Below, in pieces: positions 645 through 9,354 of a stretch of DNA of 32,865 nucleotides; position 1 is the stretch's first letter; each line of letters opens with the position of its first letter. The DNA is from a virus. The notes below the pieces were generated by a model. The model did no database searches and was not told the DNA's origin. It saw nothing but the letters and a program-made list of their open reading frames with translations. A program made the translations under genes and the position numbers. Where the stretch lies: the IMG/VR virus record IMGVR_UViG_3300043399_000218, positions 1-32,865 of that record; one strand, 5' to 3'.

Positions 645-727
645 ATATTGAAGTTTACTGGTTCAGCCAATCCCGGGAATAAAGACGTAGAGCGGTATGG
701 TACTCCGCATACAGTGAACTTCAATAT
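645..727 (+). ncRNA. Long-helix spacer RNA, copy C
   Basis: ATATTGAAGTTTACTG (645-660) pairs with CAGTGAACTTCAATAT (712-727): 16 bp with one wobble. The 51-nt interior holds a GCGG/CCGC hairpin. It is not preceded by a CCA, unlike most copies. Confidence 0.6.
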
Positions 728-730
728 GGT

Positions 731-850
731 AAATGCGCAGGCTGATGTGTAGTAGCTGGTTATACAGATCATATGCCCAGACCATCGTTAAGGGTAGCGT
801 CAGGAAACTGGACGTAGCAATGTGATCAAGCCGGAGATCAGCACCGGCTG
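731..850 (+). ncRNA. Structured spacer RNA with GNRA hairpin
   Basis: CAG-GAAA-CTG at 801-810 is a GNRA tetraloop hairpin extended by CGT/ACG with a bulged G. AGCCGG (829-834) pairs with CCGGCT (844-849) and is followed directly by GCCA, the start of copy D. The hairpin plus GCCA end resembles a minihelix mimic of a tRNA end. No ORF is credible here. Confidence 0.4.
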
Positions 851-942
851 CCATATTGAAGCAATTTCAACGTTTGTATCAGGGATGGTTTAACTTTGGG
901 GACGATATTCCCCGAGGGAACTGAGAGATTACTTCAATATGG
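851..942 (+). ncRNA. Long-helix spacer RNA, copy D
   Basis: CCATATTGAAGCAATTTC (851-868) pairs with 925-942 in an 18-bp helix with one A-C mismatch and one wobble. The interior contains GGGG/CCCC and TCAG/CTGA helices. Confidence 0.6.
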
Positions 943-1065
943 TAAGGTTCGAAACTTACGATAACGGAAGAGTAGTAATTCTAGATAAAACTACTCAAGG
1001 CACAAATTGGCGAAGATAGAGCGGATCTTCCCTTGCTGAACCTGACACTGGGAAAGACTAGGAAT
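942..1065 (+). ncRNA. Structured spacer RNA before tRNA-Val
   Basis: GTAAG (942-946) and CTTAC (955-959) close GTTCGAAA, resembling a T-arm. GAGTAGT (970-976) pairs perfectly with ACTACTC (990-996), and GAAGAT (1012-1017) with ATCTTC (1025-1030). It could be a small RNA or the relic of a tRNA. Confidence 0.4.
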
Positions 1066-1140
1066 GCATTCTTAGCTCAGCGGTAGAGCAACGCCCTTAC
1101 AAGGCGTGGGTCGTAGGTTCAATCCCTACAGGATGCACCA
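1066..1140 (+). tRNA. tRNA-Val (TAC)
   Basis: Acceptor GCATTCT/AGGATGC, D-arm GCTC/GAGC, anticodon stem ACGCC/GGCGT around CTTACAA, T-arm GTAGG/CCTAC, ACCA encoded. A near copy with a changed D-arm lies at 7395. Confidence 0.93.
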
Positions 1141-1226
1141 TATTGAAACGCACTAGGAAAAGGGTATCGACGGCTACTTCTAGTTAAAGCGTTAATCACT
1201 AGACGAATAGTGCGTTTCAATATGGT
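1137..1226 (+). ncRNA. Long-helix spacer RNA, copy E
   Basis: ACCATATTGAAACGCACTA (1137-1155) pairs perfectly over 19 bp with 1208-1226. The first four bases are the ACCA of tRNA-Val, so folding would sequester its 3' end. The interior carries a CTAGT/ACTAG hairpin. Confidence 0.65.
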
Positions 1227-1230
1227 AAAT

Positions 1231-1304
1231 GCGGGATTAGTATAATGGTATTATGACAGCCTTCCAAGCTGATGACGAGGGTTCGATTCCCTTATCCCGC
1301 TCCA
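1231..1304 (+). tRNA. tRNA-Gly (TCC)
   Basis: Acceptor GCGGGAT/ATCCCGC, anticodon stem ACAGC/GCTGA around CTTCCAA, T-loop TTCGATT, TCCA end. A second Gly(TCC) gene lies at 7315. Confidence 0.92.
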
Positions 1305-1311
1305 AGAATTT

Positions 1312-1369
1312 AGGATGCTTGCAGCAAATTTATATTTTATTATTGGAAATAAAAAACAGCATCCTGTTA
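1312..1369 (+). ncRNA. Pseudoknot-like RNA motif, copy 1
   Basis: GGATGC (1313-1318) pairs with GCATCC (1359-1364). Conserved GCAGCAAA follows the first strand and TGTTA (1365-1369) the second; GCA/TGT can pair across, forming an H-type pseudoknot. The insert is a small AU hairpin (TTTATT/AATAAA). It ends one base before tRNA-Arg. See copies at 1655, 4429, 6911, 8860, 9050 and 9296. Confidence 0.55.
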
Positions 1370-1370
1370 T

Positions 1371-1445
1371 ATCGCGTTCGTATAATGAATAATACGCTGG
1401 TCTACGAAACCAGAAATATAGGTTTGATTCCTGTACGCGGTACCA
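1371..1445 (+). tRNA. tRNA-Arg (ACG)
   Basis: Acceptor ATCGCGT/ACGCGGT with a U-G pair, anticodon stem CTGGT/ACCAG around CTACGAA, T-loop TTTGATT, ACCA encoded. A34 would need host TadA to become inosine. Confidence 0.88.
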
Positions 1446-1576
1446 TTTTAAAAACATACTGACCTATGCCCACTTTATCCCATCCAGTTATTGGACCAAA
1501 TCGTGGTTAAAGGTGCTCAGGGGCTAATATAATTAGGACTGAGTGAAAATTTGTCGGCAGTGTGTTTTTAAAATGG
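1443..1576 (+). ncRNA. Long-helix spacer RNA, copy F
   Basis: CCATTTTAAAAACATACTG (1443-1461) pairs with 1558-1576 over 19 bp with one wobble. The outer sequence differs from the ATATTGAA copies, but the architecture is the same. It begins in the CCA of tRNA-Arg and ends in the first two bases of tRNA-Ala. The interior has TCCA/TGGA and CTAAT/ATTAG hairpins. Confidence 0.65.
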
Positions 1577-1649
1577 GCTGATAGTGATAATGGGAGCACA
1601 GTGGCTTTGCAAGCCTCGGGTCGGGGTTCGATCCCCCGTCGGTCCACCA
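1575..1649 (+). tRNA. tRNA-Ala (TGC)
   Basis: Acceptor GGGCTGA/TCGGTCC includes the G3-U70 pair that marks tRNA-Ala. Anticodon stem GTGGC/GCCTC around TTTGCAA; ACCA encoded. A second Ala(TGC) gene is at 3725. Confidence 0.93.
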
Positions 1650-1654
1650 GTTTT

Positions 1655-1720
1655 AGGATGCTAACAGCAAATTTTTATACACTAGACTATTAATCTAACC
1701 AGTAAAAATGCATCCTGTGA
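1655..1720 (+). ncRNA. Pseudoknot-like RNA motif, copy 2
   Basis: GGATGC (1656-1661) and GCATCC (1710-1715) form P1. TAACA (1662-1666) can pair with TGTGA (1716-1720) in part. GCAAA follows TAACA. The insert is closed by ATTTTTA/TAAAAAT and contains TAGA/TCTA. tRNA-Lys starts six bases downstream. Confidence 0.6.
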
Positions 1721-1726
1721 TATGTT

Positions 1727-1803
1727 GGGGGTATAACTCAGTTGGCTAGAGTATCGGACTTTTAATCCGAGAGTCGTGAGTTCGAGTCTCACTACCCCTA
1801 CCA
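1727..1803 (+). tRNA. tRNA-Lys (TTT)
   Basis: Acceptor GGGGGTA/TACCCCT, anticodon stem TCGGA/TCCGA around CTTTTAA, T-loop TTCGAGT, ACCA encoded. Confidence 0.94.
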
Positions 1804-1822
1804 TTTATTAACCTAATATAGA

Positions 1823-1914
1823 CTTATTAGGTGTGACCTTAGTGTAAAGGTTTAGCACCTCACTCTGTGAAAGTGATAGAACGGGGTCAGTACCCGTAGG
1901 TCACCCCTAATAAG
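1823..1914 (+). tRNA. tRNA-His (GTG) inside an extended helix
   Basis: The tRNA body is 1833-1905: acceptor GTGACCT/AGGTCAC, anticodon stem TCACT/AGTGA around CTGTGAA, C73. Oddities: the base before position 1 is T rather than the G-1 expected of tRNA-His; the T-loop is GTCAGTA; no CCA is encoded. CTTATTAGG (1823-1831) pairs with CCTAATAAG (1906-1914), so the acceptor continues as a 9-bp helix after one U-C mismatch. It could be a functional tRNA released by processing or a tRNA-like RNA. Confidence 0.7.
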
Positions 1915-1922
1915 TTTAAAAC

Positions 1923-1998
1923 GCCGCGGTAGCTCATCAGGTAGAGCAGCAGACTGAAAATCTGTGTGTGGCTGGTTCGAGTCCAGCTCGTGGCACCA
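1923..1998 (+). tRNA. tRNA-Phe (GAA)
   Basis: Acceptor GCCGCGG/TCGTGGC, D-arm GCTC/GAGC, anticodon stem GCAGA/TCTGT around CTGAAAA, T-loop TTCGAGT, ACCA encoded. Confidence 0.93.
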
Positions 1999-2007
1999 AC
2001 TAATTTG

Positions 2008-2016
2008 TGTTATAAT
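2008..2016 (+). promoter_or_regulatory. Extended -10 promoter
   Basis: TGTTATAAT is an extended -10 element without a clear -35. It lies 25 bases before the next start codon, with an AAAGGA ribosome site between. The same TGnTATAAT box recurs at 4561, 10856, 13972, 14787, 16875, 18918 and 24455. Confidence 0.65.
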
Positions 2017-2040
2017 ACGCACACAAACAAAGGAACTTGA

Positions 2041-2259
2041 ATGAAAAAAGCAATTTTCGCAGCATTAGCTGCACTAGCTACATCTGCTGCATTTGCAGCA
2101 ACGTTTTACATAAACGGACTGTGGTATGGCACTGTTTGTCGTAGTGGTTATTACTATACTGTTTATCCGTCGCACATGGCACAGCCTGTTGGAACCACAT
2201 GTCCAGTTCGAGATGTTTACGGTAATATTATTGGTTACGGTGTAGTGACTAGCGAATAA
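2041..2259 (+). CDS. Small secreted protein with signal peptide
   Basis: 72 residues. The start MKKAIFAALAALATSAAFA is a typical Sec signal peptide (Lys-Lys, hydrophobic core, AxA-type cleavage near residue 19). The mature part is about 53 residues, rich in Tyr and Gly, with two Cys that could form a disulfide in the periplasm. AAAGGA precedes the ATG. It sits alone in the tRNA array with its own promoter. Family not recognised; a periplasmic or host-envelope function is an inference from the signal peptide only. Confidence 0.8.
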   Translation: MKKAIFAALAALATSAAFAATFYINGLWYGTVCRSGYYYTVYPSHMAQPVGTTCPVRDVYGNIIGYGVVTSE

Positions 2260-2268
2260 TTTTAATAT

Positions 2269-2345
2269 GCGATTGTAGCCCAATTGGTAGAGGCAATAGC
2301 TTGAGGGGTTATGCAGTAAGGGTTCGAATCCCTTCAATCGTACCA
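2269..2345 (+). tRNA. tRNA with GAG anticodon on a short-arm body
   Basis: Acceptor GCGATTG/CAATCGT, D-arm GCC/GGC, anticodon stem ATAGC/GTTAT around TTGAGGG, T-arm AAGGG/CCCTT, ACCA encoded. GAG reads Leu CUY codons, but bacterial tRNA-Leu has a long variable arm and this one has only about five bases. The amino acid identity is therefore uncertain. Confidence 0.75.
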
Positions 2346-2352
2346 AGATATC

Positions 2353-2471
2353 GACGCTGTAGTGTAATGGGAGCACGTTATAAACGGTGATCCTGCCAAG
2401 GATACAGACAGCAACTTTCTTTTTCCTCTGTTCAAGGAAAGGTCCGAGTTCGAATCTCGGCAGCGTCGCCA
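2353..2471 (+). tRNA. Oversized tRNA-like gene (119 nt), Gly(GCC)-like
   Basis: Acceptor GACGCTG/CAGCGTC with GCCA, a D-arm GTG/CAC and a T-arm CCGAG/CTCGG with TTCGAAT are all intact. Between D-arm and T-arm lie about 75 nt instead of about 25. A hairpin ATCC/GGAT presents TGCCAA (GCC, Gly); a second, TTTCCT/AGGAAA, presents CTGTTCA. It may hold an insertion, an abnormal variable arm or an intron. The stretch with CAGCAA followed by TCCTCTGTT faintly resembles the pseudoknot motif. Confidence 0.55.
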
Positions 2472-2479
2472 AAATAAAA

Positions 2480-2640
2480 GGATAGACGGCAAAATTGAGT
2501 CCCTGATAGCGTAGTACGCTATGGAGCGTATGAAGTCAGCAGTCCGCTGTCAAGGTAGTTAAACTCTTTTGTTCGAGACACCCTTGCGAGGCCTACTAAC
2601 ACTAGGATAGCAAGCTTCCTAACTATTTTCAAAATCAACT
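2480..2640 (+). ncRNA. Structured intergenic RNA
   Basis: GACGGC (2485-2490) pairs with GCTGTC (2546-2551), and a perfect hairpin ATAGCG-TAGTA-CGCTAT lies inside (2506-2522). The 5' end GGATAGACGGCAAAA is reminiscent of the pseudoknot motif, but no matching CTATCC-TGTTA is found. No ORF is credible. Confidence 0.4.
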
Positions 2641-2650
2641 CAGAAATGTG

Positions 2651-2679
2651 TTGACAAAGTGTAGAAAAAGATATATAAT
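2651..2679 (+). promoter_or_regulatory. Sigma70-type promoter for tRNA-Glu
   Basis: TTGACA (2651-2656), 17-base spacer, TATAAT (2674-2679). Transcription would start near 2686, just before a hairpin. Confidence 0.8.
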
Positions 2680-2690
2680 ACTACACATAC

Positions 2691-2707
2691 GCTAACAAAA
2701 AGTTAGC
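2691..2707 (+). other. 5' hairpin of the tRNA-Glu transcript
   Basis: GCTAAC (2691-2696), loop AAAAA, GTTAGC (2702-2707). It lies about 5 nt from the predicted 5' end, where such hairpins can protect a transcript. Confidence 0.45.
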
Positions 2708-2740
2708 ACTGTTCATTTAAAATTTAAAGAATAGCATTTA

Positions 2741-2817
2741 GTCCCTATAGATTACGTTGGTTAGATCATCACCCTTTCAAGGTGAAGAACCGGGATCGTC
2801 GCCCGGTAGGGACGCCA
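2741..2817 (+). tRNA. tRNA-Glu (TTC)
   Basis: Acceptor GTCCCTA/TAGGGAC, anticodon stem TCACC/GGTGA around CTTTCAA, T-stem CCGGG/CCCGG with an unusual loop ATCGTCG, GCCA encoded. Confidence 0.85.
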
Positions 2818-2927
2818 TATTAAAATGTACTTCGGCCTATATAACCGCAACCCGGCGGGGACTTAGTGAAGTATATAATACACGGTACTTAGAGCGTAAG
2901 GCACTCTAGGGGAGTACATTTTAATAT
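2815..2927 (+). ncRNA. Long-helix spacer RNA, copy G
   Basis: ATATTAAAATGTACTTC (2817-2833) pairs with 2911-2927 (16 of 17 positions). It begins in the CCA of tRNA-Glu and ends nine bases before the tRNA-Cys 5' half. Confidence 0.6.
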
Positions 2928-2935
2928 AGTTTTGC

Positions 2936-2971
2936 GGAGTATTGGCCGACCGGTTAAGGCAACGGATTGCA
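2936..2971 (+). tRNA. 5' half of a split tRNA-Cys (GCA)
   Basis: GGAGTAT (acceptor), D-arm GCC/GGC with CGGTTAA loop, ACGGA (anticodon stem) and TTGCA, ending exactly after the GCA anticodon at 2971. The matching acceptor strand ATACTCC-GCCA is at 3707-3717, more than 700 bases downstream. The expected TCCGT 3' anticodon strand is not found next to it. A nuclease gene and tRNA-Ser separate the halves. Confidence 0.65.
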
Positions 2972-2992
2972 GCATATTTGCTAAATAGATGT

Positions 2993-3577
2993 ATGAAAAC
3001 ATCTAAAAAATATGATTGGGTAGAAATACAAAAAGCATACGATTCCGGTCTTTCTCAAAGAGGATTAAATGAAAAGTATGGAGTTTCTACTAGAACTATG
3101 TATACTGCTGTAAAAAACGGAAACTTAGTTTGTAGATCAAGAAGCGATGCTGCCAAGGTACATAACTTAACTAAAGAGCCGGTTAAACATACTGAAGAGT
3201 TTAAAGCAAAACAGCGTAAACGCATTATTGCTCGTTACGAAACTGGATGGATGCCTAAAGCAGGACGTTGTAAAAAATACAAATATGTTTCGCCTATTGC
3301 AGGCGAAGTTTATTTAGATGGCACATGGGAGTTAGCTGTAGCTAAGTGGTTAGATTATAAAAAATATATCTGGACCAGAAATACTAAAAGATTTCAGTAT
3401 ATAAATTTAAAAGGAACAATAAGTCATTATGTTCCGGATTTTTGGGTAGAAGAATTAAATAGTTATTTAGAAATTAAAGGTTACGAAACTGAGTTAGATC
3501 GTTGTAAATGGTCTCAATTTAACGAACCTTTAATTGTTTGGAAGAAAAAAGAGTTAGTAGAACTAAAATTAATATAG
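2993..3577 (+). CDS. Putative PD-(D/E)xK homing endonuclease
   Basis: 194 residues from the ATG at 2993; a TTG at 2942 would give a longer product reading through the tRNA half, which is unlikely. Residues 1-40 look like a helix-turn-helix (GLSQRGLNEKYGVSTRTM). Residues about 140-165 hold YVPDFWV ... YLEIKGY, the P-D ... E-x-K pattern of the PD-(D/E)xK fold seen in phage homing nucleases. The middle is rich in Lys and Arg. It is inserted inside tRNA-Cys, a usual type of target, and its stop codon overlaps tRNA-Ser. It is more AT-rich than its neighbours, consistent with transfer. No intron core was recognised around it. Confidence 0.7.
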   Translation: MKTSKKYDWVEIQKAYDSGLSQRGLNEKYGVSTRTMYTAVKNGNLVCRSRSDAAKVHNLTKEPVKHTEEFKAKQRKRIIARYETGWMPKAGRCKKYKYVSPIAGEVYLDGTWELAVAKWLDYKKYIWTRNTKRFQYINLKGTISHYVPDFWVEELNSYLEIKGYETELDRCKWSQFNEPLIVWKKKELVELKLI

Positions 3578-3668
3578 TGACGTGGATGAGCTGGTTTAAA
3601 TCAGCACCCTGCTAAGGTGCCGCCCCCAGTAATGGGGGCCGTGGGTTCGAATCCCACCGTCACTGCCA
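3576..3668 (+). tRNA. tRNA-Ser (GCT)
   Basis: Acceptor AGTGACG/CGTCACT, anticodon stem GCACC/GGTGC around CTGCTAA, long variable arm (CCCCC/GGGGG), T-arm TGGG/CCCA with TTCGAAT, GCCA encoded. Its first two bases are the last two of the preceding stop codon. Confidence 0.93.
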
Positions 3669-3679
3669 GATAATTTCAG

Positions 3680-3717
3680 AAATGGGTGAGTAGGTTCGAT
3701 TCCTACATACTCCGCCA
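3680..3717 (+). tRNA. 3' half of the split tRNA-Cys
   Basis: T-arm GTAGG/CCTAC with TTCGATT, acceptor strand ATACTCC complementary to the GGAGTAT at 2936, then GCCA. The bases upstream (ATTTCAGAAAT) do not pair with the ACGGA of the 5' half, so either the anticodon 3' strand was lost or joining is not simple. Confidence 0.6.
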
Positions 3718-3724
3718 TTTATTT

Positions 3725-3799
3725 GGGCTGTTGGTATAGTTGGGAACACAGTAGCTTTGCAAGCTTCAGTCATCGGTTCGATTCCGATACGGTCCACCA
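3725..3799 (+). tRNA. tRNA-Ala (TGC), second copy
   Basis: Acceptor GGGCTGT/ACGGTCC with G3-U70, anticodon stem GTAGC/GCTTC around TTTGCAA, T-loop TTCGATT, ACCA encoded. Confidence 0.92.
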
Positions 3800-3819
3800 G
3801 AATTCTTGTTAGTTTAATA

Positions 3820-4243
3820 AAAACGCTACGCAGCCAGCGTAGAAATACTGATACAGTACAAGAAACCAAACCCATTCGGGATGGGAACGTCGGGTTAGGA
3901 AGCGACGTAAAACAAAAGAATACGTGAACGCAGAATGGACGGTACGAAAAGCCGTCGCTGGAGACATAACCAGCACGAACCCACCTTAGGGCCCGTTAGG
4001 CGTTAACGGTTATGCTGCGACAGTCGCGAGAGTCCCTTCCGCAGCAAGGCGTCCGAGTTGTAGCCGTAAGCTACTGGCGTAATTACACTGACTGGCCGTA
4101 AAAAACTAGTCCCCGTATAAAGTAAGCGGGCCTAACTTGCTGACACAAGGTGCTTTTACTGGTAGTGTGTCCAAGGTTGCAGAAAGAGCAAGGTGCGCTT
4201 ATCCGTACTAAGTTAGACTCTACCTAGCAACGGCGAACGTTTT
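3820..4243 (+). ncRNA. Large ornate structured RNA (about 424 nt)
   Basis: AAAACG (3820-3825) pairs with CGTTTT (4238-4243), closing the whole region. Inside are many perfect short hairpins: CTACGC/GCGTAG, CCCAT/ATGGG, ACGTCG/CGACGT, GACGG/CCGTC, GCTGG/CCAGC, CCGTT/AACGG, TGCTGCG/CGCAGCA, GTAGC/GCTAC, CCCG/CGGG and CTAACTT/AAGTTAG. No ORF. Size, density and place in a phage tRNA array recall the GOLLD and ROOL classes, but I cannot match it to either by eye. It lies between tRNA-Ala and tRNA-Asp. Confidence 0.65.
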
Positions 4244-4246
4244 AAT

Positions 4247-4322
4247 GCACCGTTAGCTCAATCGGGAGAGCACAGCACTGTCACTGCTGAGGTAAGGGGA
4301 TCGAAACCCCTACGGTGCGCCA
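4247..4322 (+). tRNA. tRNA-Asp (GTC)
   Basis: Acceptor GCACCGT/ACGGTGC, D-arm GCTC/GAGC, anticodon stem CAGCA/TGCTG around CTGTCAC, T-loop ATCGAAA, GCCA encoded. Confidence 0.92.
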
Positions 4323-4330
4323 AGATTCAA

Positions 4331-4422
4331 GGAAGGTCAATCAGATTGGCGACTGAAGCGGTCTTGAAAACCGTCGAGCTAGTGACCCTAGCCTTAGGAG
4401 TTCGACTCTCCTACCTTCCGCC
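4331..4422 (+). tRNA. tRNA-Ser (TGA)
   Basis: Acceptor GGAAGGT/ACCTTCC, anticodon stem GCGGT/ACCGT around CTTGAAA, long variable arm, T-loop TTCGACT. G73 is followed by CCG, so the final A of CCA is not encoded. Confidence 0.9.
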
Positions 4423-4428
4423 GAGCAT

Positions 4429-4554
4429 AGGATGCTAACAGCAAAATTTACTTATATAACCGGTTGGTCGTAGGTTCAAGTCCTACCTTCTGCGTGATGC
4501 GTGGAAGTAGCTCAGTTGGGAGAGCAGCTGGCACTCGAGTAATGCATCCTGTTA
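4429..4554 (+). ncRNA. Pseudoknot-like RNA motif, copy 3, carrying a permuted tRNA
   Basis: AGGATGC (4429-4435) pairs with GCATCCT (4544-4550). TAACA (4436-4440) is fully complementary to TGTTA (4550-4554), which makes this the clearest pseudoknot of the family. GCAAA follows. The variable domain is a tRNA in circularly permuted order joined through its anticodon stem (next entry). The 3' edge runs into the tilS promoter. Confidence 0.65.
4460..4531 (+). tRNA. Circularly permuted tRNA-like domain
   Basis: The 3' half comes first: CCGGT (anticodon stem 3' strand), TGGTC, T-arm GTAGG-TTCAAGT-CCTAC, acceptor strand CTTCTGC (4487-4493). After a seven-base linker GTGATGC the 5' half follows: acceptor GTGGAAG (4501-4507), TA, D-arm GCTC/GAGC, A, GCTGG (4527-4531). 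Acceptor strands pair over 7 bp and the anticodon stem over 5 bp with G-U pairs. The anticodon loop is interrupted by the flanking motif, so no anticodon can be read. No CCA is encoded. It may be a processed tRNA or a tRNA mimic such as that in bacterial Y RNA. Confidence 0.75.
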
Positions 4555-4560
4555 AATTTG

Positions 4561-4569
4561 TGTTATAAT
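4561..4569 (+). promoter_or_regulatory. Extended -10 promoter of tilS, in a palindrome
   Basis: TGTTATAAT lies inside the palindrome GTGTTATAATAACAC (4560-4574). The predicted transcription start is about 7 bases after the -10, at the A of the tilS ATG, so the mRNA would be leaderless. Confidence 0.65.
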
Positions 4570-4575
4570 AACACT

Positions 4576-5175
4576 ATGTTGAAATTGCTTGTTACATTAC
4601 CCAAACAACTAACTGTTGCGTTTAGCGGCGGTGTCGATAGTGTTGCAGTTGTAGATTTCCTTAGCCGCAAACATGATGTTAGCTGTGCATTTTTCCATCA
4701 CGGGACTGCAAACAGCGAACAGGCATTTCACTTTGTAACTGAATTTTGTCGTCAACGTGATATTGCACTGTTTATGGGTATAATGACACGAGAAAAAGAT
4801 AAAAAGACAAGTCTAGAAGAGCATTGGCGTAATGAACGCTATCGGTTTTTAGAAAGCCTCGATACACCAGTAATTACTGCACACAATTTAGATGACTGTG
4901 TGGAGACCTATGTATACAGTGCGTTACACGGTCAACCGAAAGTTATACCTGTAACGAGAAACAACATTATTCGACCCTTTCTCACCACTCCTAAACGTGA
5001 ATTTGTTAGCTGGTGTCAGCAACGAAGTATCGCATGGTGTGAAGATATAAGTAATCAAGATACAAAGTACATGCGTAACTATATTAGGCATGAGATTGTC
5101 CCTCGTGCGTTACATGTTAATCCAGGACTGCATAAAGTAGTTCGAAAAATTATTGAAAATAAGCTGCCTCTATAA
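4576..5175 (+). CDS. tilS: tRNA(Ile)-lysidine synthetase, short form
   Basis: 199 residues. TilS ligates lysine to C34 of tRNA-Ile2 (CAU), so that it reads AUA and is charged with Ile. The ATP-pyrophosphatase P-loop SGGVDS is at residues 17-22; an NLDDCVET stretch and the late RNYIRHEIVP motif, typical of TilS, follow. E. coli TilS is about 430 residues; this is only the catalytic N-terminal domain. The ATG at 4576 has no Shine-Dalgarno site and coincides with the predicted transcription start. The 3' end overlaps the CAT tRNA by 10 bases, so enzyme and likely substrate are encoded together. Confidence 0.9.
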   Translation: MLKLLVTLPKQLTVAFSGGVDSVAVVDFLSRKHDVSCAFFHHGTANSEQAFHFVTEFCRQRDIALFMGIMTREKDKKTSLEEHWRNERYRFLESLDTPVITAHNLDDCVETYVYSALHGQPKVIPVTRNNIIRPFLTTPKREFVSWCQQRSIAWCEDISNQDTKYMRNYIRHEIVPRALHVNPGLHKVVRKIIENKLPL

Positions 5176-5242
5176 CTCAATTGGTCAGAGTGGCGGCCTC
5201 ATAAGCCGTAAGTTCCTGGTTCGAGTCCAGGTGGAGGCACCA
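5166..5242 (+). tRNA. tRNA with CAT anticodon (probable Ile2 or Met)
   Basis: Acceptor GCCTCTA/TGGAGGC, D-arm ACTC/GAGT, anticodon stem GCGGC/GCCGT around CTCATAA, T-arm CCTGG/CCAGG, ACCA encoded. The first 10 bases are also the end of tilS. This placement makes it the best candidate for the lysidine-modified tRNA-Ile2, but identity elements were not proven. Confidence 0.92.
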
Positions 5243-5251
5243 AATAAATAA

Positions 5252-5336
5252 GCGGGTGTGGCGAAATTGGTAGACGCAGCAGGTTTAGGTCCTGCCGCCG
5301 CAAGGCGTGGGGGTTCGAGTCCCTTCATCCGCACCA
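5252..5336 (+). tRNA. tRNA-Leu (TAG)
   Basis: Class II. Acceptor GCGGGTG/CATCCGC, anticodon stem GCAGG/CCTGC around TTTAGGT, variable arm GCCGCAAGGC, ACCA encoded. Confidence 0.92.
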
Positions 5337-5344
5337 AAGATGTA

Positions 5345-5419
5345 GTCCTTGTAGTTCAACGGATAGAACAAGTTCCTCCTAAGAATTAGATATCAGTTCG
5401 ATTCTGGTCAAGGACACCA
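5345..5419 (+). tRNA. tRNA-Arg (CCT)
   Basis: Acceptor GTCCTTG/CAAGGAC, D-arm GTTC/GAAC, anticodon stem AGTTC/GAATT around CTCCTAA, T-loop TTCGATT, ACCA encoded. Reads AGG. Confidence 0.9.
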
Positions 5420-5433
5420 AAAAGAAGAATGTT

Positions 5434-5805
5434 ATGACTTTACGAACTTTTACAATAGACGAAGCTTACATTGCAGACGTAACAGTGCGTACAGAGTACG
5501 ATTACGTTAAAGATAGAAATAACCTCACTAACGAAGATCTTATTAAAATCTTAAAAGGATATGATAAAGGTATATGCATATCAAATAAAGATCACGATGA
5601 GTTTACTCGTTTGCGTAATCAGCTAGAAGAGCTAGGCTATATCAAAACTGAACGAGGCTGGTGGAATGGAGATCGTGTATTAAAATCATTTAAGCTAAAT
5701 GAATGGACATTCCGTAAAGGACATCGATTTCCTAGTGCAGGAGCAATGCGAGTAAGTATTACCTGTGCTCGAAAATATGGTTGGAAAACAATTTCAGATT
5801 TATAA
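5434..5805 (+). CDS. Hypothetical protein, 123 residues
   Basis: Not recognised. A charged soluble protein with Asp/Glu/Lys-rich stretches and no membrane segment or clear motif. The C-terminal WTFRKGHRFPSAGAM region is basic and might bind nucleic acid. A weak AAGAAG precedes the ATG. The stop codon is followed immediately, with no gap, by tRNA-Arg (5806), so gene and tRNA are likely cotranscribed. Confidence 0.7.
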   Translation: MTLRTFTIDEAYIADVTVRTEYDYVKDRNNLTNEDLIKILKGYDKGICISNKDHDEFTRLRNQLEELGYIKTERGWWNGDRVLKSFKLNEWTFRKGHRFPSAGAMRVSITCARKYGWKTISDL

Positions 5806-5880
5806 GGGCCTTTGGTGAAATGGATATCATCACTCGCTTCGAACGAGTAGTTAGGAGTTCGATCCTCTTAGGGCCCGCCA
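5806..5880 (+). tRNA. tRNA-Arg (TCG)
   Basis: Acceptor GGGCCTT/AGGGCCC, anticodon stem ACTCG/CGAGT around CTTCGAA, T-loop TTCGATC, GCCA encoded. Starts on the base after a stop codon. Confidence 0.9.
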
Positions 5881-5886
5881 GAACTA

Positions 5887-5914
5887 TTGACATAGTTACA
5901 TAAGAATGTATAAT
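5887..5914 (+). promoter_or_regulatory. Sigma70-type promoter for the tRNA at 5921
   Basis: TTGACA (5887-5892), 16-base spacer, TATAAT (5909-5914). The predicted start falls on or next to base 1 of the tRNA at 5921, so there may be no 5' leader for RNase P to remove. Confidence 0.75.
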
Positions 5915-5920
5915 TACTAT

Positions 5921-6030
5921 GTGACTGTGAGCAAATAGGCAAAGCTCTGCAAACACACTGTAATTAGTGTCAGCAGGATGGGTTCAGTTATTAACTACCT
6001 ATGCAGGTTCAAGTCCTGCCAGTCATACCA
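5921..6030 (+). tRNA. Oversized tRNA-like gene (110 nt), Tyr(GTA)-like
   Basis: Acceptor GTGACTG/CAGTCAT, D-arm GAGC/GCTC, T-arm GCAGG/CCTGC with TTCAAGT and ACCA are intact. The best anticodon loop is CTGTAAT (GTA, Tyr), closed by ACACA and TGTGT-like strands with a bulged A. Five extra bases follow the D-arm and the variable region is over 30 nt. tRNA-Tyr is class II in bacteria, which fits in part. It could be a damaged or intron-bearing tRNA. Confidence 0.6.
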
Positions 6031-6053
6031 AACAACTTAACTAAGTAAAACAT

Positions 6054-6218
6054 ATGAACAAACCGACATCAACTTTTAGGCTTTCTAAACCGACCAAGAC
6101 GCTGCTAGCCCTGGGTAAGTTTAAAACTGCTGACGCACGTAATCATTTCAAGCGTATGATGATTGACGCAGAGCTTGAAGCAAGTAAAAAAGTTAAGTCC
6201 GAAAAAACTAAAGACTAA
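6054..6218 (+). CDS. Small basic hypothetical protein, 54 residues
   Basis: ATG at 6054, stop at 6216. Very Lys/Arg-rich with a predicted helix in the middle (NHFKRMMIDAELEASKKVK). No clear Shine-Dalgarno. It lies between two tRNA genes. Possibly a small nucleic-acid-binding protein; no family recognised. Confidence 0.6.
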   Translation: MNKPTSTFRLSKPTKTLLALGKFKTADARNHFKRMMIDAELEASKKVKSEKTKD

Positions 6219-6230
6219 ATAGAAACATAT

Positions 6231-6306
6231 TCCCCAATAGCTCAGTTGGTAGAGTGCCGGACTGTTAATCCGTTGGTCCCTGGTTCGAGCCCAGGTTGGG
6301 GAGCCA
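6231..6306 (+). tRNA. tRNA-Asn (GTT), second copy
   Basis: Acceptor TCCCCAA/TTGGGGA, D-arm GCTC/GAGT, anticodon stem CCGGA/TCCGT around CTGTTAA, T-arm CCTGG/CCAGG, GCCA encoded. Better formed than the copy at 300. Confidence 0.94.
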
Positions 6307-6333
6307 ATTAACATTTAACACATAGAGGTAAAA

Positions 6334-6465
6334 ATGGCAAAAGCAAGTTCAGGTTCTAATCATAAAAGCGTAGTTAAAACTACCTGTCAAAACGGCGGCA
6401 AGACTAGTACAATGACTAAGACTGGCAAACGTAGTCACAAAGCATATCGAGGACAAGGGCGTTAA
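6334..6465 (+). CDS. Small basic protein, 43 residues
   Basis: Starts MAKASSGSNHKSVV after AGAGGTAAAA and ends KAYRGQGR. Ser/Thr/Lys/Gly-rich, about a quarter basic, probably disordered. Two bases separate it from the next gene, so the pair is translationally coupled. Function unknown. Confidence 0.65.
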   Translation: MAKASSGSNHKSVVKTTCQNGGKTSTMTKTGKRSHKAYRGQGR

Positions 6466-6467
6466 AA

Positions 6468-6764
6468 ATGGCAGGTAAAGGTTCTAAGCCTCGTCCATTT
6501 AGCGTGAGTCAAGCAGAATATGATTCACGATGGGATGCAATTTTTTGTAGAGATCTGAAAGAAGAAACTATGACCCCTAGTGTTGAACAAATGAAAAAAG
6601 GTACTTGCGGCTGCGGTCGCAGTCCAACTGGTGATTGCTGCGGTTGGCATAGTCTAACTGAAGAAGCATTCCAAGAAAAACTTCGAGCTTATGAGCTCGA
6701 ACAGTACAAGAACGAAGCTAAGGCATTATGGAATGATAGTTGCACTTCTGAACGTTCTAAATAA
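6468..6764 (+). CDS. Phage Cys-rich protein, 98 residues
   Basis: Begins MAGKGSKPRPFSVSQAEYDS, a start I associate with many phage hypothetical proteins. Residues about 47-60 hold CGCGRSPTGDCCGW, a cluster of four to five Cys that could bind zinc. The C-terminal half is helical and charged. It follows the 43-residue gene and ends just before a tRNA promoter. Biochemical role unknown. Confidence 0.75.
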   Translation: MAGKGSKPRPFSVSQAEYDSRWDAIFCRDLKEETMTPSVEQMKKGTCGCGRSPTGDCCGWHSLTEEAFQEKLRAYELEQYKNEAKALWNDSCTSERSK

Positions 6765-6782
6765 ATTTAGTCAAGAAAATGC

Positions 6783-6811
6783 TTGACATGTGGTGAAAAG
6801 ATAAATATAAT
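6783..6811 (+). promoter_or_regulatory. Sigma70-type promoter for tRNA-Thr
   Basis: TTGACA (6783-6788), 17-base spacer, TATAAT (6806-6811). Start expected near 6818, 12 bases before tRNA-Thr. It may also serve the RNA elements that follow. Confidence 0.82.
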
Positions 6812-6829
6812 AGTAACAGTTAATAAGAA

Positions 6830-6905
6830 GCCCTTTTAGCTCATTTGGTAGAGCAGCTGACTTGTAATCAGCAGGTGGTCAGTTCGAGTCCGACAAAGGG
6901 CACCA
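6830..6905 (+). tRNA. tRNA-Thr (TGT)
   Basis: Acceptor GCCCTTT/AAAGGGC, D-arm GCTC/GAGC, anticodon stem GCTGA/TCAGC around CTTGTAA, T-loop TTCGAGT, ACCA encoded. Confidence 0.94.
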
Positions 6906-6910
6906 AATTT

Positions 6911-7034
6911 AGGATAGGCGCAGCAAAATTTAATACTATGGATTGCTAATAAATACCTCGAAAGAGATTTTACTAGATAGAGGATTTTCGATATTTGCCT
7001 CGATAAAAACTAAAAGTAGATAACTATCCTGTTA
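6911..7034 (+). ncRNA. Pseudoknot-like RNA motif, copy 4
   Basis: GGATAG (6912-6917) pairs with CTATCC (7024-7029), a covarying version of the GGATGC/GCATCC stem. GCGCAGCAAAA follows the first strand and TGTTA (7030-7034) the second. The insert carries a TCGAAA/TTTCGA helix and CCTC/GAGG. Confidence 0.6.
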
Positions 7035-7234
7035 AAACCCGGTTTACACTTTTGCGTTAACTAAAGTGGGTATTGTAGTAATCCAGAACTACACGGTGCA
7101 TAAGGTCTACCGCAAGGTCCGCTTTACATGGACGACTTGAAAAATTCTTAGGTTGACGAATAGCTGGACCAAACTACAGTAACGTGGACAGAGTAACAGC
7201 TCAGTTTAAGGCTCTTGTGGTGAGAGTAGTTAAA
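7035..7234 (+). ncRNA. Structured RNA or spacer between motif copy 4 and copy H
   Basis: No gene. Several hairpins are visible (GTAGT/ACTAC, GTCC/GGAC). Probably part of the transcript starting at 6818; its role is not clear. Confidence 0.35.
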
Positions 7235-7315
7235 CATTTTAATAAAACACACTGAGTAGCTCAGATTTGAGAGCACTAGCATAGCAAGGGGTCGTAAGTG
7301 TGTTTTATTAAAATG
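7235..7315 (+). ncRNA. Long-helix RNA, copy H, with tRNA-like interior
   Basis: CATTTTAATAAAACACACT (7235-7253) pairs perfectly over 19 bp with 7297-7315. The 43-nt interior looks like a tRNA D-arm (TAGCTCAGATTTGAGAGCA) followed by CTAGCATAGCAAG and GGGTCGTA, as in a tRNA-Ala without T-arm. The inner seven pairs of the helix would be the acceptor stem. Its last base is the first of tRNA-Gly. Confidence 0.6.
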
Positions 7316-7388
7316 CGGGTGTAGTTCAATGGTAGAACTTCTGCCTTCCAAGCAGATAGCGTGGGTTCGATTCCCATCGCCCGCTCCA
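7315..7388 (+). tRNA. tRNA-Gly (TCC), second copy
   Basis: Acceptor GCGGGTG/CGCCCGC, D-arm GTTC/GAAC, anticodon stem TCTGC/GCAGA around CTTCCAA, T-loop TTCGATT, TCCA end. Confidence 0.93.
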
Positions 7389-7394
7389 AACATT

Positions 7395-7470
7395 GCATCC
7401 TTAGCTCAGCGGTAGAAGCGTCGCCCTTACAAGGCGAATGTCGTAGGTTCAATCCCTACAGGATGCACCA
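7395..7470 (+). tRNA. tRNA-Val (TAC), second copy with a D-arm insertion
   Basis: Nearly the same as the gene at 1066: acceptor GCATCCT/AGGATGC, anticodon loop CTTACAA, T-arm GTAGG/CCTAC, ACCA. The D-arm has an extra A (GTAGAAGC instead of GTAGAGC), which weakens the D-stem. It may be a functional variant or be decaying. Confidence 0.82.
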
Positions 7471-7485
7471 ACTTACAAGGTGTTT

Positions 7486-7680
7486 ATGAAAACTTTAATT
7501 AGTGATAATGGTGGCTATAAACTGTATGCAGAGCTTGTTAAGCCAATGCGAGACACAGGTCAAGTACAATTGAAGTTTTCAACACAATGGGAAGGTTCTA
7601 AAAACCCAGAAGAGTTTCAAAGCATGTTCGAAGCAATGCTTACAGCAGAGGAACTCGATAGGCTAAAGAACTTACTGTAA
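7486..7680 (+). CDS. Hypothetical protein, 64 residues
   Basis: ATG at 7486 is preceded by ACAAGG at good spacing; a GTG at 7480 is a weaker option. Sequence MKTLISDNGGYKLYAELVKP, then a helix-rich acidic C-terminus (EEFQSMFEAMLTAEELDRLK). Soluble, no motif recognised. Lies between tRNA-Val and tRNA-Pro. Confidence 0.7.
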   Translation: MKTLISDNGGYKLYAELVKPMRDTGQVQLKFSTQWEGSKNPEEFQSMFEAMLTAEELDRLKNLL

Positions 7681-7691
7681 AAAGAATAAAT

Positions 7692-7766
7692 CTCGGTGAG
7701 GTGTTGACGGCGACACACGTGCTTTGGGAGCATGAATGGCAGATTCGAGCTCTGCCACCGAGACCA
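7692..7766 (+). tRNA. tRNA-Pro (TGG)
   Basis: Acceptor CTCGGTG/CACCGAG, anticodon stem CGTGC/GCATG around TTTGGGA, T-loop TTCGAGC, ACCA encoded. Last tRNA of the array. Confidence 0.92.
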
Positions 7767-7770
7767 TAAC

Positions 7771-7778
7771 TATAAATA
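7771..7778 (+). promoter_or_regulatory. T4-type late promoter box
   Basis: TATAAATA matches the T4 late promoter consensus. The expected start, about six bases downstream, is the ATG at 7784, giving a leaderless late mRNA. Similar boxes lie at 22571 (minus strand) and 25859. Confidence 0.55.
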
Positions 7779-7783
7779 CGTTA

Positions 7784-8074
7784 ATGAAATCATTTAACGA
7801 TTATTTAACTGAAGAGCATAACCGAAAGACTTACTTTCGCGGGACTAACAATCCTAAAGAAGACGATCTGGTAAAACGTAAAGAGCTACGTCCTTCGCTT
7901 AATCATGTTACTAACAAACGAGAAATTGGAATATCAGTAAGCGACGTTCCGGATGTCGAAAAATATTTTGATTACATGTACAAAATAAGTGGCGTAGAAG
8001 TAGGAGAAGGGGCAGACGGAGAACCGTTGCTTGATCCAAAAACAATTAAGTTTGTTAAGTGGGTTAAGCGTTAA
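7784..8074 (+). CDS. Hypothetical protein, 96 residues
   Basis: Starts MKSFNDYLTEEHNRKTYFRG. A longer frame from 7736 would read through tRNA-Pro and is rejected. No Shine-Dalgarno; translation is probably leaderless from the TATAAATA box. The middle (SVSDVPDVEKYFDYMYKISG) is acidic and helical. Family not recognised; the late box suggests a virion or late role. Confidence 0.7.
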   Translation: MKSFNDYLTEEHNRKTYFRGTNNPKEDDLVKRKELRPSLNHVTNKREIGISVSDVPDVEKYFDYMYKISGVEVGEGADGEPLLDPKTIKFVKWVKR

Positions 8075-8105
8075 ATTTTAAACAATATTTTATAAGGAGA
8101 TTATC

Positions 8106-8117
8106 ATGCGATTATGA
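8106..8117 (+). CDS. Possible three-codon minigene (MRL)
   Basis: AAGGAGATTATC precedes ATG-CGA-TTA-TGA. The following real gene has a near-identical TTTTATAAGGAG site, so the site looks duplicated. A translated minigene could modulate initiation at 8136. It may equally be an accidental by-product of the duplication. Confidence 0.3.
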   Translation: MRL

Positions 8118-8135
8118 TTTTATAAGGAGCATGAT

Positions 8136-8480
8136 ATGTCTAGAACATATAAAGACCAGCCGAGTCGAGTTACACATCCAGAAAACGAATGGCGTTTCGG
8201 TGTTGAGCGTGTAGATTACACGTTTAAAGACAGCGAGGGCTACGAAGTTACATGGTTTCGTTATCTTGACTTGCCAGGAGTACATACTAAGAAGAAGCGT
8301 TCTTACCGAGAACGACATTGGATGACTACTCCGATGTGGTGGGTTCGACTGATGATGAATCAACCTCAGCGTGTAGCAACCAAACAATGGGAAAAGAAAG
8401 TAGTAAAAGTTAGAGTCGAAGACATAATCGATCTGGACACCCCTAGCGTAAGCAGGCGTCCTCACTGGTACTATTGGTAA
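8136..8480 (+). CDS. Hypothetical protein, 114 residues
   Basis: ATG after a strong AAGGAG. Rich in Arg, Trp and Tyr (ERHWMTTPMWWVRLMMNQP; RRPHWYYW at the end). No transmembrane segment. The aromatic and basic make-up suggests RNA or protein binding, but no family is recognised. A terminator follows directly. Confidence 0.75.
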   Translation: MSRTYKDQPSRVTHPENEWRFGVERVDYTFKDSEGYEVTWFRYLDLPGVHTKKKRSYRERHWMTTPMWWVRLMMNQPQRVATKQWEKKVVKVRVEDIIDLDTPSVSRRPHWYYW

Positions 8481-8483
8481 TTT

Positions 8484-8508
8484 ATAGGCACTGCAAGGTG
8501 CCTATTTC
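8484..8508 (+). terminator. Rho-independent terminator
   Basis: ATAGGCAC and GTGCCTAT form an 8-bp stem around TGCAAG, followed by a short T run. Ends the transcript of the gene at 8136. Confidence 0.65.
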
Positions 8509-8535
8509 ACTATATGCAACACATTAGACGCTAAC

Positions 8536-8577
8536 GCATAGCCAGTCAACTCTGCCTATTTGGCTGCTGGTCTATGC
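8536..8577 (+). promoter_or_regulatory. Leader hairpin before the 65-residue gene
   Basis: GCATAG-CCAG (8536-8545) pairs with CTGG-T-CTATGC (8567-8577), ten pairs with one bulge. It precedes AAAAGGAGATTGAT and the ATG at 8608. Possibly mRNA-stabilising or a translational operator. Confidence 0.4.
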
Positions 8578-8607
8578 TATATACAGTAGCTATAAAAGGA
8601 GATTGAT

Positions 8608-8805
8608 ATGACTACTTCGTTGAAGAAAAAACCACTTCAGTTGGTCAATAATAGGTCCGGTGAACGCTGGCTATGTGATGATTTTTCCACTGTTCGTAGT
8701 GTGGACGGTGTAGATTTTGTGGAAGTCTATAAAGAGTCCAGTACAAGAAGGTTTTGGATGAATAAATCTGTCTTAGTAAAAGAAAAGAAGTTGACAAGCA
8801 AGTAA
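8608..8805 (+). CDS. Hypothetical protein, 65 residues
   Basis: Good AAGGAG site. Basic at both ends, beta-rich middle (GERWLCDDFSTVRSVDGVDF). No family recognised. The promoter of the RNA cluster lies inside its last codons. Confidence 0.7.
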   Translation: MTTSLKKKPLQLVNNRSGERWLCDDFSTVRSVDGVDFVEVYKESSTRRFWMNKSVLVKEKKLTSK

Positions 8806-8819
8806 ACTTACACTATAAT
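8791..8819 (+). promoter_or_regulatory. Strong promoter of the RNA cluster and DUF2828 gene
   Basis: TTGACA (8791-8796), 17-base spacer, TATAAT (8814-8819): full consensus at both boxes. The start is expected near 8826. Downstream are four structured RNAs and then the Ro60-like gene, with no other terminator or promoter seen before 9371. Confidence 0.85.
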
Positions 8820-8859
8820 AGATACATGTTAAGCAATTAACACTGTTCTTTAAATTTTT

Positions 8860-8976
8860 AGGCTAGGTGCAGCAACTACTACATTAAAGTGGGCCTGGGC
8901 ATATAATCTTAGGATTATCCGGGCGAGGTGAGTTTGTATTCTCACTCGAAACAAAAATGCAAAAACTAGCCTGTTA
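8860..8976 (+). ncRNA. Pseudoknot-like RNA motif, copy 5
   Basis: GGCTAG (8861-8866) pairs with CTAGCC (8966-8971); GTGCAGCAAC follows the first strand and TGTTA (8972-8976) the second. The insert holds two strong hairpins: CCTGG ... ATAATC-TTAG-GATTAT ... CCGGG, and CGAG-GTGAG/CTCAC-TCG. First RNA of the cluster upstream of the Ro60-like gene. Confidence 0.65.
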
Positions 8977-9043
8977 TTTTGCTACTACAACTGACAGAAC
9001 TGCCGAACGGAGTTGAACATCAGAAGAACGTGTAGCATAAAAT
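8976..9043 (+). ncRNA. Compact hairpin RNA
   Basis: ATTTT-GCTAC (8976-8985) pairs with GTAGC-AT-AAAAT (9032-9043). Inside, CAACT (8988-8992) pairs with AGTTG (9011-9015). The long closing stem with a smaller internal hairpin recalls Y RNA shape in general terms only. Confidence 0.5.
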
Positions 9044-9049
9044 GTTTTT

Positions 9050-9281
9050 AGGATGGCTACTGCAAATCAAAAATTAAAGCCGTAAATTAGTAGATAGAGA
9101 CCCTACAGTAAGTTTTTCGAAACTTTCTTTGCCTGCAAAGACTCCTAGGAAACTAATGACATGTTGGAAAGACAGCATATGCGCTAGGGCAGACAAACCT
9201 TAGCTAGGGTCTTGAAACTGAACCAACATACAGGGGATTAAGGAGACCAGAAAATAAATTACTGTTTCGACCATCCTGTTA
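9050..9281 (+). ncRNA. Pseudoknot-like RNA motif, copy 6, with a large nested domain
   Basis: GGATGG (9051-9056) pairs with CCATCC (9271-9276), then TGTTA (9277-9281). GCAAA lies at 9062. The insert of about 200 nt contains nested perfect helices: ATTAGT/ACTAAT, AAGTTT-TTCG-AAACTT, CTTTG/CAAAG, ATGTTGG/CCAACAT enclosing AAGAC/GTCTT. Largest member of the family. Confidence 0.65.
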
Positions 9282-9295
9282 AATTAAATTAAGTT

Positions 9296-9354
9296 GAATG
9301 CTAACAGCAAACTTAAAAAATCTCAAATTGAAACTTTGATCTAAAAACGCATTC
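9296..9354 (+). promoter_or_regulatory. Pseudoknot-like motif, copy 7, in the DUF2828 leader
   Basis: GAATGC (9296-9301) pairs with GCATTC (9349-9354); TAACAGCAAA follows the first strand exactly as in copies 2 and 3. Instead of TGTTA the second strand is followed by AGAAAGGA, the ribosome site of the gene at 9371. Inside is a TCAAA/TTTGA hairpin. The position suggests feedback control by a protein that binds this motif. Confidence 0.55.

What the first reader, a model, noticed from the sequence alone, without database searches (positions are those of the whole stretch)
1312..9354. A repeated pseudoknot-like RNA motif with seven copies and variable cargo domains
Copies at 1312, 1655, 4429, 6911, 8860, 9050 and 9296 share: GGnTnn (GAATGC in the last), then nnRC(A/T)GCAAA, a variable domain of about 30-205 nt, the complement of the first strand, and TGTTA (TGTGA once). 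The stem covaries: GGATGC/GCATCC, GGATAG/CTATCC, GGCTAG/CTAGCC, GGATGG/CCATCC, GAATGC/GCATTC. RCA next to strand one can pair with TGT after strand two, giving an H-type pseudoknot. Each copy has its own cargo hairpin, so it looks like a constant binding platform plus exchangeable module. I know no published class with this signature.
Basis: seen in the sequence. Interest (0 to 1): 0.88.

Follow-up and report, generated by a model that had tools for sequence, protein, structure and literature searches.

The report
Phage Y-RNA-like tRNA-mimic RNA family
A large phage carries a set of small RNAs that share one short docking stem but display different imitation pieces of tRNA; the same RNAs occur in most examined phages that encode a Ro60-type ring protein, so they look like the RNA partners of that protein, and they resemble RNAs so far reported only from social amoebae.

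Summary
The repeated element is real and much larger than the seven copies. It is a covarying 6-bp stem with an unpaired NNNC(A/T)GCAA after its 5' strand, A before it and UG after it. An unbiased test gives 92% complementarity where about 6% is expected. The pseudoknot is not supported.

The flanking gene 9371-10783 (DUF2828/DUF7788) has the Ro60 fold: the top eight PDB matches are all Ro60/TROVE. A covariance model of the element finds copies in 20 of 24 genomes with this gene and in 0 of 5 without it, from KVP40 and Felix O1-like phages to Listeria, Staphylococcus and Campylobacter phages.

The "cargo" is often tRNA mimicry: circularly permuted tRNAs (window copy 3, a weak Rfam YrlA match), acceptor-less tRNAs, and anticodon stem-loops (19 of 62 short copies against 0.8 expected). 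The element is also inserted, closed by a 6-nt loop, in some tRNA genes. A leader copy ends at the Ro gene's Shine-Dalgarno site in the window and all 27 close relatives examined.

Best reading: Y-RNA-like ligands of a phage Ro60 protein, autoregulated and presenting tRNA-like modules. Stem and motif also match Dictyostelium Class I RNAs, described as unique to dictyostelids. RNA-protein binding is inferred, not shown.

The parts
1313..1369 (+). copy 1: platform GGATGC/GCATCC, short hairpin cargo, TGTTA
   Evidence: Rfam Dicty_Class_I_RNA 28.8 bits; R1 56.2 bits (member of the training set)
1656..1720 (+). copy 2: platform GGATGC/GCATCC, short cargo with 4-bp anticodon-stem-loop-like hairpin (loop CTATTAA), TGTGA
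4430..4554 (+). copy 3: platform GGATGC/GCATCC, cargo = circularly permuted tRNA (T-arm, 7-bp acceptor hairpin CTTCTGC/GTGGAAG, D-arm), TGTTA
   Evidence: (YrlA RF02553 31.2 bits)
6912..7034 (+). copy 4: platform GGATAG/CTATCC, 118 nt, TGTTA; follows tRNA-Thr
   Evidence: 30.1 bits
8861..8976 (+). copy 5: platform GGCTAG/CTAGCC, 111 nt, TGTTA
   Evidence: 26.4 bits
9051..9281 (+). copy 6: platform GGATGG/CCATCC (CTGCAA variant), 226 nt, TGTTA
9296..9354 (+). copy 7: leader copy GAATGC/GCATTC in the 5' UTR of the Ro60-like gene; its 3' flank is the Shine-Dalgarno site AGAAAGGA
   Evidence: 35.2 bits
2353..2468 (+). tRNA-like gene with a degenerate closed platform (ATCC-TGCCAA-GGATAC-AGA-CAGCAA at 2390-2414) between D-arm and anticodon arm
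   Evidence: clearer homologues in L016, L038, L082, L198
9371..10783 (+). Ro60-fold protein (DUF2828/DUF7788; PHROG 850 RNA-binding protein)
8791..8819 (+). 12/12 sigma-70 promoter match upstream of copies 5-7 and the Ro60-like gene
215..7766 (+). tRNA array of 25 ARAGORN genes in which copies 1-4 are embedded

Best explanation
The repeats are genes for small noncoding RNAs that act as Y-RNA-like partners of the phage's own Ro60-type ring protein (DUF2828/DUF7788). The shared part (A, 6-bp stem starting with G, NNN, C(A/T)GCAA, and UG after the stem) is the docking element for the ring. The exchangeable interior often displays tRNA modules: an anticodon stem-loop, or a permuted elbow plus acceptor without an anticodon, or a tRNA body without an acceptor. 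Docked RNAs therefore present tRNA pieces on the Ro ring, either to tether tRNA- or RNA-handling enzymes (as YrlA tethers PNPase) or as decoys for tRNA-directed nucleases during infection. The last copy, which ends at the Ro gene's Shine-Dalgarno site, lets free Ro protein repress its own translation. Shown here: family, architecture, covariation, tRNA mimicry, co-occurrence with the gene, Ro60 fold, leader geometry. Inferred: direct binding, autoregulation, tether or decoy role. My odds: RNA partner of the Ro-like protein 0.8; leader autoregulation 0.6; tether or processing role 0.45 against nuclease decoy 0.3.
For: Ro60 fold: AF2 model with pLDDT 92 and pTM 0.91; the first eight PDB matches are all Ro60/TROVE (9kop, 1yvr, 2i91, 9nfa, 9nep, 2nvo, 9nen; E 1e-9 to 3e-6); invariant MIDAS residues D273, S275, S277, T348, D380. 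Co-occurrence: covariance model R1 matches (E<=0.01) in 20/24 genomes with the gene and 0/5 without (T4, T5, CcrColossus, phiKZ, P-SSM2), including Staphylococcus, Enterococcus, Fusobacterium and Campylobacter phages next to the gene. Conversely, contigs chosen only by the RNA pattern carry the gene in 4/4 large genomes and 21/36 fragments, against 682 of 50,697 phage records. Strand bias 50:0 and 31:0. Stem covariation 110/119. tRNA mimicry: 46 copies with a perfect 7-bp acceptor hairpin between T-arm and D-arm, YrlA match, 19/62 anticodon stem-loops against 0.8 in shuffles, acceptor-less tRNAs, closed platforms in tRNA genes. Leader copy at the Shine-Dalgarno site in the window and all 27 close relatives examined.
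Against: No binding or expression data for these RNAs. In several phages (Ochrobactrum OC, Serratia BF, DLP6, KVP40) the copies lie 7-200 kb from the Ro gene, in or near tRNA arrays, so proximity is not universal. phiM12 and LeBron give only weak matches, and Lak-A1 and FADO miss the threshold. The YrlA match is far below its gathering score (31.2 vs 69) and aligns over the cargo, not the platform. Most of the 50-60 nt copies have no recognised tRNA module.
Confidence: 0.78

Rival explanations
1. Processing or stability elements of the tRNA array: stem plus CAGCAA is a cleavage or protection signal that helps mature tRNAs from long transcripts, and the Ro60-like gene is only a frequent neighbour.
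For: Copies 1-4 sit directly 3' of tRNA genes; distant copies in other phages lie in tRNA arrays.
Against: Phages with tRNA genes but no Ro60-like gene (T4, T5) have none; Gram-positive and Campylobacter phages have copies adjacent to the Ro gene; many interiors are themselves tRNA mimics.
Confidence: 0.1
2. Decoys for anticodon nucleases: the RNAs present anticodon stem-loops and tRNA bodies to absorb host defence nucleases, with the Ro60-like protein as carrier. This is a functional sub-case of the main reading.
For: 19/62 short copies carry canonical anticodon stem-loops with varied anticodons; a competitive-inhibitor role was proposed for the YrlA tRNA-like domain (PMC7790460).
Against: The permuted class lacks an anticodon arm; no nuclease was tested; many copies have no such loop.
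Confidence: 0.3
3. Cis-regulatory elements only: each copy is a leader or terminator-like structure regulating the adjacent gene.
For: The leader copy overlaps the Shine-Dalgarno site in the window and all 27 close relatives examined.
Against: Most copies are not in gene leaders; several lie 3' of the gene or between tRNAs; interiors up to about 300 nt, many with tRNA-like folds.
Confidence: 0.07
4. Mobile DNA element or recombination site with variable cargo (attC-like or transposon ends).
For: Inverted-repeat arms with variable interiors in tandem.
Against: Arms covary, the sequence is strand-oriented relative to the gene (50:0), no transposase was seen beside the copies, and the order TAACA...TGTTA is not that of attC.
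Confidence: 0.02

Closest known systems
Bacterial Y RNA YrlA (Rfam RF02553) with Rsr
   Same: Encoded with a Ro60-type protein; terminal stem joins both ends; interior = permuted tRNA (T-arm, capped acceptor stem, D-arm). Window copy 3 cargo aligns to the model (31.2 bits).
   Different: Terminal stem and motif differ (CAGCAA platform); score below gathering (69); here one phage has many RNAs with different modules, including anticodon stem-loops and acceptor-less tRNAs, and the protein is DUF2828/DUF7788, with no Pfam TROVE match in the window.
Dictyostelium Class I RNAs (Rfam RF01414)
   Same: 5' G preceded by A, 6-bp covarying end stem, conserved ..T..C..CAA motif directly after the 5' strand (CCUUACAGCAA), variable interior, 3' CUGU, about 60 nt (PMC7919456). 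15 of 19 model matches in phage genomes fall exactly on platform copies; 5 of 5.
   Different: Never reaches the gathering score (28.8 on a window copy, 33.7 in Lak-A1, against 41.5); reported as unique to dictyostelids; known binder is the RRM protein Rnp1A, and no Ro60 link is reported in the paper read; promoter element DUSE not expected in phage.
Metazoan Y RNAs / Ro60
   Same: Small RNA with an end stem, partner of a ring-shaped HEAT plus vWA protein (fold match).
   Different: No sequence similarity seen; no Rfam Y_RNA match in the window.
ROOL RNA (RF03087)
   Same: Structured phage RNA beside tRNA genes.
   Different: A different RNA. It is what Listeria phage cka15 expresses at CKA15_059-061 (L346:3120-3671, 90.1 bits), which PMC12282133 suggested might be Y RNAs; the platform copies are separate (L346:4315, 4404, 4473).

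Membership tests
Ro60/TROVE superfamily (the protein) | HEAT-repeat ring plus vWA domain | tested here: met
   AF2 + Foldseek, top eight hits Ro60/TROVE over the whole length
Ro60/TROVE superfamily (the protein) | Pfam TROVE (PF05731) match | tested here: not met
   no match; DUF2828/DUF7788 instead
Ro60/TROVE superfamily (the protein) | MIDAS residues DxSxS, T, D | tested here: met
   invariant in 31 phage proteins
YrlA Y RNA (RF02553) | curated gathering score 69 | tested here: not met
   31.2 bits for copy 3, 26.4 in L053
YrlA Y RNA (RF02553) | tRNA-like domain with T-, acceptor and D-arms | tested here: met
   46 copies with a 7-bp acceptor hairpin; a subset only, not all copies
YrlA Y RNA (RF02553) | gene beside a Ro60-type gene | tested here: met
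   not in all phages
YrlA Y RNA (RF02553) | binds Rsr through the end stem | not testable with these tools
   needs biochemistry
Dictyostelium Class I RNA (RF01414) | curated gathering score 41.5 | tested here: not met
   0 of 29 genomes over the cut-off
Dictyostelium Class I RNA (RF01414) | 5' G, 6-bp covarying stem, ..T..C..CAA motif, 3' CUGU | tested here: met
   against PMC7919456; the motif is 3 nt + C(A/T)GCAA here, and UGU is frequent, not invariant
Dictyostelium Class I RNA (RF01414) | binds Rnp1A; DUSE promoter | not tested
   eukaryotic features, not applicable to phage
H-type pseudoknot | covarying second stem RCA/TGT | tested here: not met

The most novel reading that the evidence does not exclude
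Phage platform RNAs and Dictyostelium Class I RNAs are one ancient ligand family of Ro60-like (DUF2828-type) proteins, so Class I RNAs are Y-RNA-like ligands and not a dictyostelid invention; phages use the platform as a general mount for tRNA-fragment mimics.
Probability: 0.3. Interest if true: 0.95.

Novelty: new variant of a known kind. Interest (0 to 1): 0.86.

Why it matters
The DUF2828 phage protein is in at least 682 phage records and is usually called hypothetical or RNA-binding, with no RNA partner identified in the papers found here. This work proposes its RNA partners, with a motif simple enough to test, in phages that grow on laboratory hosts (KVP40, Felix O1-like). It shows tRNA mimicry in several topologies on one mount, suggests autoregulation, and offers a partner hypothesis for Dictyostelium Class I RNAs, whose mode of action is unknown.

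Tried and rejected
H-type pseudoknot: not supported. attC or transposon ends: arm order and strand bias argue against. CKA15_059-061 as platform RNAs: rejected, they are ROOL. One-sequence PDB search found nothing; a profile gave only weak Ro60 vWA hits (E 0.08), and fold comparison settled it. The strict descriptor missed copies in Gram-positive phages that the covariance model found. Stem covariation in A3 is biased because copies were picked by complementarity; only one search is an unbiased test. Control phages were few (five) and lack the gene. Literature searches found no description of these phage RNAs, but the library lacks most subscription journals, including the main bacterial Y RNA papers.
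Full report
WHAT IS THERE. The window is a fragment of a phage genome (a 32,865-base virus record) with a dense tRNA array (25 ARAGORN genes) followed by protein genes. Their common part is A, a 6-bp stem whose first base is G, three variable bases, C(A/T)GCAA, a variable interior, the other stem strand, and usually UGUUA. Copies 1-4 are interleaved with tRNA genes. Copies 5-7 follow a perfect sigma-70 consensus (8791-8819) and lead directly into the gene 9371-10783.

THE GENE. Pfam places 9371-10783 in DUF2828 and DUF7788, and PHROGs calls it an RNA-binding protein. An AlphaFold2 model from 53 related phage proteins (pLDDT 92, pTM 0.91) has as its first eight PDB matches only Ro60/TROVE proteins: Xenopus Ro60 with RNA, human Ro60, Deinococcus Rsr and a TROVE-domain crystal structure, E 1e-9 to 3e-6. 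The metal-site residues D-x-S-x-S, T and D are invariant. Pfam's TROVE model itself does not match, so it is a Ro60-fold protein of a separate sequence family. Annotators of several phages already call it Ro-like or Rsr-like, and at least 682 phage records hold a relative.

THE RNA FAMILY IS WIDE AND FOLLOWS THE GENE. In 80 loci around close relatives of the gene plus the window, the descriptor occurs 208 times in the sense direction and 8 times antisense; in 79 loci around distant relatives, 50 to 0. In the first group the order upstream of the gene is largely conserved: a 100-165 nt copy, often a 190-260 nt copy, and a 50-nt copy in the leader. In other clades copies lie just 3' of the gene. 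A covariance model (R1) built from 43 diverse short copies matches 20 of 24 genomes that have the gene and none of five that lack it (T4, T5, CcrColossus, phiKZ, P-SSM2). R1 found copies next to the gene in Staphylococcus, Enterococcus, Bacillus, Fusobacterium and Campylobacter phages that the letter pattern had partly missed, and all 31 matches in a further set were sense. The reverse test also holds: contigs taken only because they contain the 5' half of the RNA carry the gene in 4 of 4 large genomes and 21 of 36 fragments, against 1.3% of phage records. In some phages (Ochrobactrum OC, Serratia BF, KVP40, DLP6) the copies are far from the gene but in or near tRNA arrays.

STRUCTURE. The stem is supported without selection bias: of 119 5' halves followed by any NNATCCTG, 110 have exactly the complementary NN, in at least nine combinations. 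In the 43-sequence alignment each of the five variable pairs has double changes (these copies were chosen by complementarity, so this only illustrates the variety). The published probing of a Dictyostelium Class I RNA also found the corresponding motif unpaired (PMC7919456).

THE CARGO IS OFTEN tRNA MIMICRY. Of 448 distinct copies, 95 contain tRNA arm signatures. In 46 of 79 copies whose T-arm comes first, the T-arm is followed by a perfect 7-bp acceptor stem closed by a loop, then a D-arm; that is a circularly permuted tRNA mounted at the anticodon end, the arrangement of YrlA. Window copy 3 is one of them and is a weak match to the YrlA model. A few copies have D-arm, anticodon arm and T-arm in normal order with the acceptor stem replaced by the platform (L164, L165, L430). 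Of 62 dissimilar short copies, 19 contain a canonical anticodon stem-loop (5 bp, loop YUnnnRn) against 0.8 in dinucleotide shuffles, with many different anticodons. Finally, the platform occurs in inside-out order, closed by a 6-nt loop TGnnAA, inserted between D-arm and anticodon arm of tRNA genes in several phages, including the annotated tRNA-Pseudo of Citrobacter phage Ci1; the window's 2353-2468 gene carries a degenerate example.

LEADER COPY. In the window and all 27 close relatives examined, the last stem strand ends 12-18 nt before the Ro gene's ATG, with the Shine-Dalgarno sequence in place of UGUUA; in KVP40 the stem strand contains the ATG. Protein bound there would block initiation. 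This is an inference from position.

MECHANISM. The most economical reading is a Ro60-type RNP: the platform docks on the ring and the interior presents a tRNA module. In bacteria YrlA is bound by Rsr through its end stem while the tRNA-like domain binds PNPase (PMC8394870), and a decoy role against an anticodon nuclease has been proposed (PMC7790460). Either could apply here; the presence of anticodon stem-loops favours interaction with tRNA-directed enzymes. Binding, autoregulation and either function are untested.

RELATION TO KNOWN CLASSES. It works like a Y RNA but does not meet the YrlA family threshold. The platform matches the published features of Dictyostelium Class I RNAs, and the Rfam Class I model picks platform copies out of phage genomes: 5 of 5 matches in 63 kb, 15 of 19 in 29 genomes (the others include one weak hit in T4 and a Lak-A1 hit that on inspection is one of two tandem platform-like copies). 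It never reaches the curated score, so I do not file it as Class I. Common descent or convergence on one binding surface cannot be separated here. The Class I paper reports no such RNAs outside dictyostelids.

A CORRECTION. PMC12282133 suggests that the very abundant RNAs CKA15_059-061 of Listeria phage cka15 may be Y RNAs for its Rsr-like protein CKA15_055. Rfam identifies that locus as ROOL (90.1 bits, just under the 99.1 gathering score). The platform RNAs are three other, unannotated copies directly upstream of CKA15_055. That paper also found CKA15_055 in purified virions.

Noticed in passing
window 121-217, 641-731, 851-943, 1137-1227, 1443-1577, 2815-2931, 7232-7314: Seven other inter-tRNA elements with long closing stems (about 15-19 bp, e.g. 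CATATTGAA...TTCAATATG), several starting at a tRNA CCA end, with unrelated interiors. No Rfam match; function unknown.
   Followed up: partly
L346:3120-3671 (Listeria phage cka15): ROOL RNA (90.1 bits, slightly below gathering) is the locus reported as up to 67% of phage transcripts, previously annotated as ORFs CKA15_059-061.
   Followed up: yes
window 2651-2679, 5887-5914, 6783-6811, 8791-8819: Four 12/12 sigma-70 promoters in the array; at least two are followed by a boxA-like CTGTTCTTTAAA/CTGTTCATTTAAA sequence (about 2709, 8842), as in antiterminated tRNA/rRNA operons.
   Followed up: no
window 5921-6027: A further tRNA-like gene with an insert in the anticodon region (30.6 bits, not called by ARAGORN); relation to the platform unclear.
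   Followed up: no
window 4558-5175: PP-loop ATPase ORF (ATP_bind_3; the family includes TilS-like tRNA lysidine synthases) between tRNA genes, directly after copy 3; may modify phage tRNAs.
   Followed up: no
window 11280-12305 and 14849-16243: NAD salvage pair: nucleotidyltransferase-NUDIX fusion and nicotinamide phosphoribosyltransferase, also near the Ro gene in Synechococcus phage BUCT-ZZ01.
   Followed up: no
L433 (Lak-A1 110700-110900): Two tandem platform-like copies in a Lak megaphage, one with an anticodon-loop-like CTTTTAA hairpin; highest Rfam Class I score found (33.7 bits).
   Followed up: partly
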